Shown piece by piece: positions 19,802 to 47,801 of a stretch of DNA of 64,000 nucleotides (the first letter of the stretch is position 1; every line of letters begins with the position of its first letter). The position numbers and the translations under genes were made by a program. Below the pieces are notes generated by a model. The model saw only the letters and a list, made by a program, of their open reading frames with translations, was not told the DNA's origin and did not search any database. Source of the DNA: Acidobacteriota bacterium (GTDB lineage Bacteria; Acidobacteriota; Terriglobia; Bryobacterales; Bryobacteraceae); contig QHXW01000290.1 in the NCBI GenBank assembly GCA_003223115.1, positions 1 through 64,000 on the forward strand, written 5' to 3'.

Positions 19802-19824
19802 GTGGGACCGGGCTTTCGCCGGTC
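19802..19824 (+). repeat. Family A hairpin repeat, copy with changed stem
   Basis: GTGG, then stem GACCGG, loop GCTTTCG, stem CCGGTC. The copy at 35685-35707 has GACAGG and CCTGTC around the same loop, so the two differ by a compensated base pair. Confidence 0.65.
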
Positions 19825-19905
19825 GCTTCACGAACCCCGGCCTTGAGCTGGTCCATCCACGGCGGCCGCGGTCGTGAGATCCTGGTAAATCTCCGCGAGA
19901 ACCAG

Positions 19906-35560: not shown

Positions 35561-36139
35561 AGGCGTCTGTTGTGTGGAATAGGCATTTCTGCAGCATTCC
35601 TGCCTGTTATGGCTTAGTTTAGTTATAGTGCAGGCGTACGCCGGTGTTTCATCCGGGGTCCCGGCTGCGATCCAGTGGGCTTACGTGAGACAGGGCTTTC
35701 GCCTGTCGCTCGACGAGCTCTTCCGTCTCCTGGCTGGTCTGTGACTTCTCCCTGTTTGAACACGACAGCCCGGGTTGGCCGCAATATGGATGCTGGTCTA
35801 GAGGAGTGCTACAAGAGCCTCGCTAATGTTCAATCGCCTTCCCGGAGCCATGCTGATCTCGGGGCATTCGCACCAATGAAGAAAGGGCCTTAACTGCAGC
35901 CGTGTGCTTTCGCAGTATAACTCTGGAGCCACAAAAAGTCACAGACTGTTCAATCCAGCCTCAGCTGGTGGCCCCGCTGATCTGTGACTTCCAGTCAAGC
36001 CGTTTATTTCCAACATCGGCTGTCTCCCCAAAAACTGCAGCGCGGGAAGCCGGTAGTCGGCTGCGGTCGAAGTCACAGGCTGTTCAATCCGGCACCGCCG
36101 GAGGTGGCTGACTCCTGCCTGCGTGGGACACGTTCTAAA
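35561..36139. repeat. 579-base repeat cluster without genes
   Basis: Two families lie here. Family A: 35574-35607, a 34-base copy with an internal duplication of 11 bases, and 35685-35707 (stem GACAGG, loop GCTTTCG, stem CCTGTC). Family B: a 55-base element at 35936-35990 bounded by perfect 10-base inverted repeats AAGTCACAGA and TCTGTGACTT, containing a hairpin CCAGC-CTCA-GCTGG. A second copy at 36070-36108 starts AAGTCACAGGCTGTTCAATC and has CCGGC-ACC-GCCGG in the hairpin position. A single TCTGTGACTT lies at 35738-35747. A related end occurs at 28750-28766. Confidence 0.7.
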
Positions 36140-37462: not shown

Positions 37463-37515
37463 ATGATGGCTCCTTCGGCCGGCGAAACTTTCGGCTAAAG
37501 GCCTGATTGCCTGTT

Positions 37516-46903: not shown

Positions 46904-46941
46904 ACAGGCAGGAATGCCACTGGGCATGCAGGCAGGAATGC
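46904..46941 (-). repeat. Family A repeat, reverse orientation, doubled
   Basis: ACAGGCAGGAATGCC at 46904-46918 and GCAGGCAGGAATGC at 46928-46941 are two reverse-strand copies of the core of the repeat at 1481. They lie between the stops of two convergent genes. Confidence 0.7.
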
Positions 46942-46952
46942 TGAGGGAACGC

Positions 46953-47801
46953 CTACTCCACCGGGCGCTTTTTCTGAGCTTCCAGCAGCCGGTAGGCCTC
47001 GCGTTTCGAGAGCCCGTGCTGGTGTGCCACCTGCTTGAGAGCCTCCATGCGGCTCATCCCCTGCCGCATGCTGATTTCGACTTCGCTTTCGAGTGATGCG
47101 CCATCGGCGGGTTGTTCCGCGCCGCGTTCGGCCCTCGCGATCAGGAGTGTGATCTCCCCTTTCACCGACGGGCGCGAACGAAGTTGGGCCTCGAGTTCCG
47201 CCGGCGTGCCGCGCAGGAACTCCTCGTGTATTTTCGTCAGCTCGCGCGCCACAACCACGCGCCGGTTGCCCAGCGCCTTGCCGATATCCGCAAGAGCGTC
47301 TGCAATGCGATGCGGCGCTTCGTAAAAGATCAGCGTGGCCTGCTCGCTCTTCAGGGCGTCCAGGGCGCGGATTCTCTGTCCTGATTTAATGGGCAGGAAG
47401 CCCCCGAAGTAGAACGAGTCTGTCGGCAGGCCCGATGCCGCGAGCGCCACAACCAGGGCTGATGCCCCTGGAACGGGCACCACGCGTATCCCGCCGCCGA
47501 TAGCTGCCGACACCAGACGATAACCGGGATCGGACACCAACGGCATTCCGGCATCGGATACTAGCGCGACGTTTGTGCCCTCGATCAGCTTGTTCACCAG
47601 TTCCTCCGCTCGAGCGTCTTCATTGTGTTCGTAATAGCTGACGGTGGGCCGTTTGATTCCGTAGTGTTCCAATAATTTCCGCGTCTGCCGCGTGTCCTCG
47701 CAGGCAATCAGGTCCGCTTCACGCAGGATGCGCACGGCGCGATGGGTCATGTCCTCCAGATTGCCGATCGGCGTGGCGACGATGTAGAGCGTTCCGGGCA
47801 T
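46953..47801 (-). CDS. rsmI: 16S rRNA (cytidine-1402-2'-O)-methyltransferase
   Basis: 282 residues. The tetrapyrrole-methylase fold starts with GTLYIVATPIGNLEDMTHRA and continues with LIACEDTRQTRKLLEHYGIK, VALVSDAGMPLVSDPGYRLV and PTDSFYFGGFLPIKSGQR, all hallmarks of RsmI. It methylates the 2'-hydroxyl of C1402 in 16S rRNA. The gene lies two bases after the stop of the HpnK-like gene, at the end of the mla transcript. The C-terminal 40 residues contain the usual helical DUF-type tail. Confidence 0.97.
   Translation of the reverse strand: MPGTLYIVATPIGNLEDMTHRAVRILREADLIACEDTRQTRKLLEHYGIKRPTVSYYEHNEDARAEELVNKLIEGTNVALVSDAGMPLVSDPGYRLVSAAIGGGIRVVPVPGASALVVALAASGLPTDSFYFGGFLPIKSGQRIRALDALKSEQATLIFYEAPHRIADALADIGKALGNRRVVVARELTKIHEEFLRGTPAELEAQLRSRPSVKGEITLLIARAERGAEQPADGASLESEVEISMRQGMSRMEALKQVAHQHGLSKREAYRLLEAQKKRPVE

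What the first reader, a model, noticed from the sequence alone, without database searches (positions are those of the whole stretch)
35561..36139. Cluster of hairpin repeats of two families, with terminal inverted repeats
A 55-base unit bounded by AAGTCACAGA and TCTGTGACTT with an internal hairpin occurs at 35936-35990, and a diverged copy at 36070-36108 has a compensated stem (CCAGC/GCTGG versus CCGGC/GCCGG). The ends look like a miniature transposable or REP-type element. No gene lies in the 579 bases.
Basis: seen in the sequence. Interest (0 to 1): 0.5.

Follow-up and report, generated by a model that had tools for sequence, protein, structure and literature searches.

The report
Miniature RNA-guided IS110 transposon pair
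The hairpin cluster is two gene-less mobile elements lying side by side in a soil bacterium, one of which carries a guide RNA of the bridge-RNA type whose guide letters match the DNA next to it, so they look like miniature, hitch-hiking relatives of RNA-guided IS110 jumping genes.

Summary
Element A (35979-36109) has at least 41 near-complete copies in its genome; element B (35736-35978) has seven matches. Both share the ends of ~1.65 kb elements in other Bryobacteraceae genomes whose 468-490 aa gene hits Pfam DEDD_Tnp_IS110 and Transposase_20. B's core, read on the minus strand, is the structured non-coding region upstream of that gene: a bridge-RNA candidate. In 18 elements the predicted target-guide letters match the flank of the element's own insertion in 63 of 72 positions (permuted mean 29, 0 of 100,000 reach it). 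The donor guide matches the element end in all six elements where both could be read. In the window B's guide reads GATCT, A's left end. A carries neither gene nor bridge RNA; most copies sit at a CT core in CTYCTGN heptamer DNA. Best reading: non-autonomous IS110-family elements, one guide-bearing and one miniature, mobilised in trans. REP/RAYT is not supported. No intact recombinase or GACT-guide RNA was found in this assembly; movement is inferred, not shown.

The parts
35736..35978 (-). Element B: guide-bearing, gene-less IS110-family element (strand given as that of the RNA; right core CT 35977-35978 included)
   Evidence: seven matches in own genome; ends and core shared with recombinase-bearing elements of relatives; borders read
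35734..35735 (.). CT core dinucleotide at B's left border
   Evidence: sequence; compare 32 of 36 A copies with CT at this position
35739..35745 (.). B left subterminal repeat CTGTGAC
35792..35944 (-). Bridge-RNA candidate (covariance model R1 match; the real transcript may be longer)
   Evidence: R1 match E 6.6e-40; the window copy is one of the model's 15 seeds, so this match is by construction
35793..35799 (-). Putative donor guide, + strand reads CTGGTCT, identical to B's left end 35734-35740
   Evidence: same relation in five other elements
35853..35860 (-). Putative target guide, + strand reads CT-GATCTC; B's right flank reads CT-GATCTG (35977-35984)
35938..35944 (.). B right subterminal repeat GTCACAG
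35955..35968 (.). B terminal hairpin CCAGC/GCTGG
35979..36109 (+). Element A: miniature without gene or bridge RNA, at least 41 near-complete copies in the genome; CT core at its right border 36108-36109 included
   Evidence: not matched by R1
35982..35988 (.). A left subterminal repeat CTGTGAC
36072..36078 (.). A right subterminal repeat GTCACAG
36089..36101 (.). A terminal hairpin CCGGC/GCCGG
36102..36109 (.). A right tip; this copy is shortened by a few bases relative to the consensus GGCATGGCT
   Evidence: alignment; sequence
36110..36119 (+). Right flank GACTCCTGCC, CTYCTGN heptamer DNA, the inferred original target

Best explanation
A and B are non-autonomous members of an IS110-family insertion-sequence lineage of Bryobacteraceae. 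The full element (about 1.65 kb, seen in relatives) has a DEDD recombinase gene with a structured non-coding region upstream of it, the bridge-RNA position of the IS110 group. B kept the ends and the bridge RNA but has no recombinase gene. A has only the ends (subterminal repeat CTGTGAC/GTCACAG and a terminal hairpin) around an unrelated short core. Proposed mechanism: a recombinase supplied from elsewhere binds a bridge RNA; one loop pairs with the element end (donor guide), the other with a chromosomal site (target guide), and a CT common to both is the exchange point, so no target duplication arises. A entered CTYCTGN heptamer DNA at CT|GACTCCTG; B, whose guide reads GATCT, then entered at A's left end. 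Shown: copy number, shared ends, recombinase homology, guide-to-flank and guide-to-end matches. Inferred: transcription of the RNA, trans-mobilisation, order of insertion.
For: Shared ends and core with full elements: left end to right end about 1.6 kb with one long gene between in L092/L124, L098, L120, L123. Gene: DEDD_Tnp_IS110 E 4e-18, 5e-20, 7e-19 and Transposase_20 E 6e-10, 7e-12, 3e-9 for L092, L120, L123; only PDB relative at E 0.01 or better is ISCro4 transposase, E 6e-6. RNA: 15 cores align at 72% mean identity, two pairs change on both sides (GC 8/CG 7; UA 11/CG 4); found in 25 of 257 genomes of the order, seeds included. Target guide: 63 of 72 positions match over 18 elements, permuted mean 29.0, maximum 50, 0 of 100,000; reduced set of 12: 45 of 48 against 19.5, 0 of 100,000. 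Donor guide equals own end in 6 of 6 readable elements with four different triplets. A borders: CT in 32 of 36 copies; joined flanks keep one heptamer register, 542 of 768 against 207-283 in the other six phases. Four A copies with CCAA/CCAC flanks share an internal variant, and the own-genome B copy L076 has guide CCAAAA.
Against: No intact recombinase of this lineage in the own assembly: one broken copy (C200) and a contig-end piece (C451) among 17 matches, the rest more distant. No own-genome RNA with a GACT guide, although 20 of 36 A copies have GACT at the flank. The second target guide is weak: best of 15 frames (two pairing rules tried) 25 of 49, 0.0023 uncorrected, n = 7. L095's guide does not match its flank. 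Of 9 A copies with clear heptamers on both sides only 6 agree in phase. Only 2 of the 4 CCA-type A copies show the CT core and the GCC end. The window's A copy has a shortened right tip. Orthologous empty sites were not shown; joining the flanks of one copy inside coding DNA (L070) gave no clean reading frame. Subterminal repeats plus upstream RNA and a long recombinase fit neither textbook group exactly.
Confidence: 0.84

Rival explanations
1. REP/BIME palindromes spread by a RAYT (Y1) transposase.
For: Intergenic, hairpin-bearing, multi-copy; 15 Y1_Tnp matches in the genome; one A copy (C131:6851) lies about 3.3 kb from a Y1 match.
Against: None of the 12 fetched Y1 loci carries A; ends, hairpin and border are those of elements with an IS110-family gene.
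Confidence: 0.04
2. A is not a derivative but an independent repeat that IS110-type elements use as a landing pad, as IS1111 uses QMITE2 in Coxiella.
For: B sits at A's left end in three of the seven B matches (C217, C562, C14) and B's guide reads A's left letters.
Against: A itself carries the element's full end anatomy on both sides (subterminal repeats, CTGTTCAATCC, hairpin, CT border), and most A copies have no B next to them.
Confidence: 0.06
3. A is a host-kept structured element (terminator, small RNA) that spread long ago; its IS110 ends are a relic.
For: A-like elements with a related core motif occur in other genera: seven loci in four genomes (L221, L230, L226, L227, L231, L233, L229), so more than the ends is conserved; stable fold, -52.4 kcal/mol (no shuffle control run).
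Against: Amplified in one species only: 0 matches in congener G002, right-end fragments only in G001; copies 88-99% identical to consensus and placed in heptamer DNA rather than at fixed gene positions.
Confidence: 0.06

Closest known systems
IS110 group insertion sequences with bridge RNA (IS621; PMC11208160, passages read)
   Same: DEDD recombinase family; structured RNA upstream of the gene; a guide identical to the left target plus core dinucleotide; a donor guide matching the element end; no target duplication
   Different: A and B lack the recombinase; A lacks the RNA; 7-bp subterminal repeats and a roughly 30-base hairpin tip beyond one of them; recombinase ORF 468-490 aa
IS1111 group with seekRNA (PMC11187229, passages read)
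   Same: Subterminal inverted repeats and RNA-guided insertion
   Different: IS1111 usually has the RNA downstream of the gene, 11-13 bp repeats and short 7/3 bp tips; here the RNA is upstream, the repeat is 7 bp, one tip is about 30 bases long
Coxiella QMITE2, a target of IS1111 (PMC5896051, passages read)
   Same: A short multi-copy element into which an IS110-superfamily IS inserts
   Different: QMITE2 has 7-11 nt direct repeats and is described as a target, not as carrying the IS ends or a guide RNA
Bacterial MITEs in general (recalled, and PMC10969869 seen as a listing only)
   Same: Short, gene-less, multi-copy, intergenic, ends shared with an autonomous element
   Different: No terminal inverted repeats at the very ends, no target duplication, and the presumed partner is RNA-guided

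Membership tests
IS110 family (as origin) | DEDD_Tnp_IS110 and Transposase_20 domains in the full element | tested here: met
   three of three ORFs scanned, above curated cut-offs; absent from A and B themselves
IS110 family (as origin) | bridge-RNA-like structured region next to the gene | tested here: met
   upstream of the gene as in the IS110 group
IS110 family (as origin) | target guide matches the insertion site | tested here: met
   63 of 72, 0 of 100,000 permutations; second guide half inconclusive
IS110 family (as origin) | donor guide matches the element end | tested here: met
   6 of 6 readable elements by eye; no permutation run
IS110 family (as origin) | shared core dinucleotide, no target duplication | tested here: inconclusive
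   CT at 32 of 36 left borders; no orthologous empty site compared
IS110 family (as origin) | circular intermediate, recombination activity | not testable with these tools
   needs experiment
IS1111 group | RNA region downstream of the gene | tested here: not met
   upstream in L092, L120, L123
IS1111 group | long subterminal inverted repeats | tested here: inconclusive
   7 bp CTGTGAC/GTCACAG; 7-17 bp quoted in PMC11208160, usually 11-13 in PMC11187229
MITE | short, no coding capacity, multi-copy | tested here: met
   A at least 41 near-complete copies
MITE | ends shared with an autonomous element | tested here: met
MITE | terminal inverted repeats and target-site duplication | tested here: not met
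   repeats are subterminal, no duplication seen in the flanks; so 'works like a MITE', not a textbook one
REP/RAYT | repeat frames Y1 (RAYT) genes of the genome | tested here: not met
   0 of 12 fetched Y1 loci, of 15 matches
REP/RAYT | conserved tetranucleotide at the foot of a 20-40 nt palindrome (recalled) | not tested
   no systematic test

The most novel reading that the evidence does not exclude
A three-tier parasitic system: recombinase-bearing IS110 elements; guide-only elements (B) that supply bridge RNAs in trans and redirect the recombinase; and guide-less miniatures (A) that ride on them. Some B guides read A's left end, so B homes onto A and builds B+A units that may move together. 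It would be a natural case of donor ends and guide RNA living in separate mobile elements.
Probability: 0.35. Interest if true: 0.78.

Novelty: new variant of a known kind. Interest (0 to 1): 0.62.

Why it matters
Bridge-RNA recombinases are being developed as programmable DNA-joining tools, but in the passages I read the recombinase, guide RNA and ends are treated as one element. Here natural copies separate these parts: some 40 copies with ends only, several with ends plus guide RNA. That gives a data set on which end letters, core and hairpin suffice for mobility, and a test of guide-to-target matching from sequence alone. It also explains an intergenic repeat class of soil Acidobacteriota: the right-end motif occurs in 30 of 257 genomes of the order.

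Tried and rejected
Rfam on the window at gathering thresholds: no match; on six B loci at E up to 3: one tRNA and three sub-threshold hits. RAYT link: tested and dropped. An IS200/IS605 reading was considered and dropped once the IS110 recombinase appeared. I first took the layout for IS1111-type because the core lies 3' of the gene in my reading direction; corrected when the gene proved to be on the opposite strand. Second target guide: weak only. Coding-gene empty sites: joined flanks of 36 A copies were scanned for open frames and four translations looked at; no clean restored gene. A hairpin motif near 35683 was searched as a second repeat family with an idealised 20-mer: 0 matches at up to 2 mismatches; the idealised pattern may simply be wrong.

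Paper searches (open PMC text only): IS110 + bridge RNA (19 hold the terms, 18 listed); IS110 + MITE + non-autonomous (8); seekRNA (9); IS1111 + miniature inverted (4); bridge RNA + non-autonomous (1; passages unrelated); Solibacter + repeats + insertion sequence (7, listing only); IS110 family + miniature inverted-repeat transposable elements (1). In these seven searches I saw no description of IS110-derived miniatures with or without a bridge RNA. Passages were read in PMC11208160, PMC5896051, PMC11187229, PMC9769881, PMC11578231, PMC3718332 and PMC12859917; all others were seen as listings.

Full report
What was checked. The cluster at 35561-36139 was read and compared with itself. AAGTCACAGACTGTTCAATCC at 35936 recurs at 36070 and, with up to 3 mismatches, 46 times in the genome that holds the window (9.14 Mb, 594 contigs); the reversed control gives none. 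BLAST with the consensus gave 43 places, 41 covering at least 103 of 136 positions, at 88-99% identity (40 of 59 candidates scored, so a lower bound).

Element B. The bases upstream (query 35730-35978) match seven places in the genome, several of them partial or at contig ends. In three of the seven (C217, C562, C14) element A follows directly. In BLAST, A and B share only their ends. B's core is present in congener G001, and in four full elements (L092/L124, L098, L120, L123) it lies about 1.6 kb from a matching left end with one long gene between.

The gene. The 468-490 aa ORFs of L092, L120 and L123 hit DEDD_Tnp_IS110 and Transposase_20 above the curated cut-offs; start codons are not certain. 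The one PDB relative at E 0.01 or better is the ISCro4 transposase, E 6e-6. L098's gene is interrupted in the record (unread letters, frame breaks) and was not scanned. The gene runs on the strand opposite to the RNA core as drawn on the window's + strand, so in gene orientation the core is the non-coding region upstream of the gene, where IS110-group elements keep the bridge RNA (PMC11208160, PMC11187229; passages).

The RNA. Fifteen cores align at 72% mean identity. The consensus fold (-16.2 kcal/mol, of which -1.45 covariation; no shuffle control run) has an outer stem, an internal loop around a small apical hairpin, and a second stem-loop; two of 20 pairs change on both sides, one being GC in 8 and CG in 7 sequences. 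The model matches in 25 of 257 genomes of the order; seeds match by construction, and several weak matches in another family of the order (E about 1e-8 to 1e-13) were not examined closely.

Guides. Of 28 right ends (picked with a pattern that already asks for GG...CT), 24 have the form GGC-NNN-G-CT (exceptions L102, L107, L178, L214), which fixes the border. Taking the six letters after CT in the RNA loop and the six flank letters after the element's CT, 18 elements agree at 16, 16, 17, 14, 8 and 0 of 18 positions. Over the first four this is 63 of 72; permuted mean 29.0, maximum 50, 0 of 100,000 permutations reach it. Dropping rows that share a loop or whose flank is another element leaves 12 rows: 45 of 48 against 19.5, again 0 of 100,000. 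L095 disagrees. Elements without a readable right end or loop (L077, L155/L100, and weak or truncated model matches) were left out before the count, and near-identical copies (L074, L088, L091) were counted once. The donor guide (CT-NNN-CTAG on the + strand as drawn) agrees with the element's own end in all six elements where both could be read: GGT (window), AGC (L120), AAC (L176, same locus as L096), GGC (L098, L123, L124); L077 and L079 have lost that segment. The second target guide is weak: best of 15 frames 25 of 49, 0.0023 uncorrected, n = 7.

In the window. B's donor guide CTGGTCT (35793-35799) equals B's left end CTGGTCT (35734-35740). B's target guide CTGATCTC (35853-35860) meets CTGATCTG (35977-35984), A's left end. 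B therefore lies where its own guide points: against A.

Element A. A has no recombinase ORF and is not matched by the bridge-RNA model (one search lists six G000 places, none at A). Of 37 distinct copies with flanks in held loci, 36 have a left flank. CT is the left core in 32 of 36; the right flank starts GACT in 20, GTCT in 5, CCAA or CCAC in 4, other in 7. For the 32 non-CCA copies the joined flanks follow the heptamer CTYCTGN in one register, 542 of 768 positions against 207-283 in the six other phases. Of the 9 copies with clear arrays on both sides, 6 agree in phase and 3 do not. The four CCA-type copies share an internal variant (GTCG); two of them have a CT core and end GCC. This genome's B copy L076 has guide CCAAAA and a donor-guide segment reading GGC in gene orientation, a fitting partner. 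No own-genome B copy with a GACT guide was seen; relatives have them, inserted in the same kind of heptamer DNA (L094, L096, L113). A-like miniatures with a related core lie in other genera, seven loci in four genomes; that core pattern also gave four single reversed-control hits, so lone 2-mismatch matches in other genomes may be chance. The right-end motif occurs in 30 of 257 genomes, with no reversed-pattern hits in the table.

Reading. The cluster is a nested pair of non-autonomous IS110-family elements, one carrying a guide RNA. Mobilisation in trans is inferred: no intact recombinase of the lineage was found in this assembly, which is broken into 594 contigs, some ending inside these elements (L075, L077). 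The lineage mixes traits: subterminal repeats as in IS1111, RNA upstream as in IS110, and a recombinase ORF longer than the 315-450 aa quoted for the IS110 family in the passage of PMC11187229. Seven paper searches showed no account of IS110 miniatures, within open PMC text only.

Noticed in passing
window 1482, 18289, 35575 (+): A separate repeat, about GTGGAATAGGCATTCCTGCCTGT, occurs three times in the window (a fourth match at 37500 is poor); shuffled mean 0.15.
   Followed up: partly
window 35683-35717; similar stretches at 19802-19833 and 46929-46961: Hairpin-like GGGCTTTCGCC stretch and the repeat near it have diverged partners elsewhere in the window at 84-85% identity.
   Followed up: partly
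G000 C37:97371, C155:7395, C328:33690 and 33697, C580:4443: Strict triple CTYCTG heptamers occur 5 times, 0 for the reversed control; at least some are away from any A copy. Their origin is unexplained.
   Followed up: partly
L104/L116 (G099) and L105/L115 (G102): Very short elements with the same ends (16-51 bases between the subterminal repeats) sit in a different heptamer-like DNA, AGCTGATAGCTGA.
   Followed up: no
L070 (G000:C338:37345-37476): An A copy appears to split a coding region; the two halves are not in one clean frame when joined.
   Followed up: partly
L074 (C562), L028 (C565), L021 (C223): Short internal tandem duplications inside several A and B copies.
   Followed up: no
   Followed up: no
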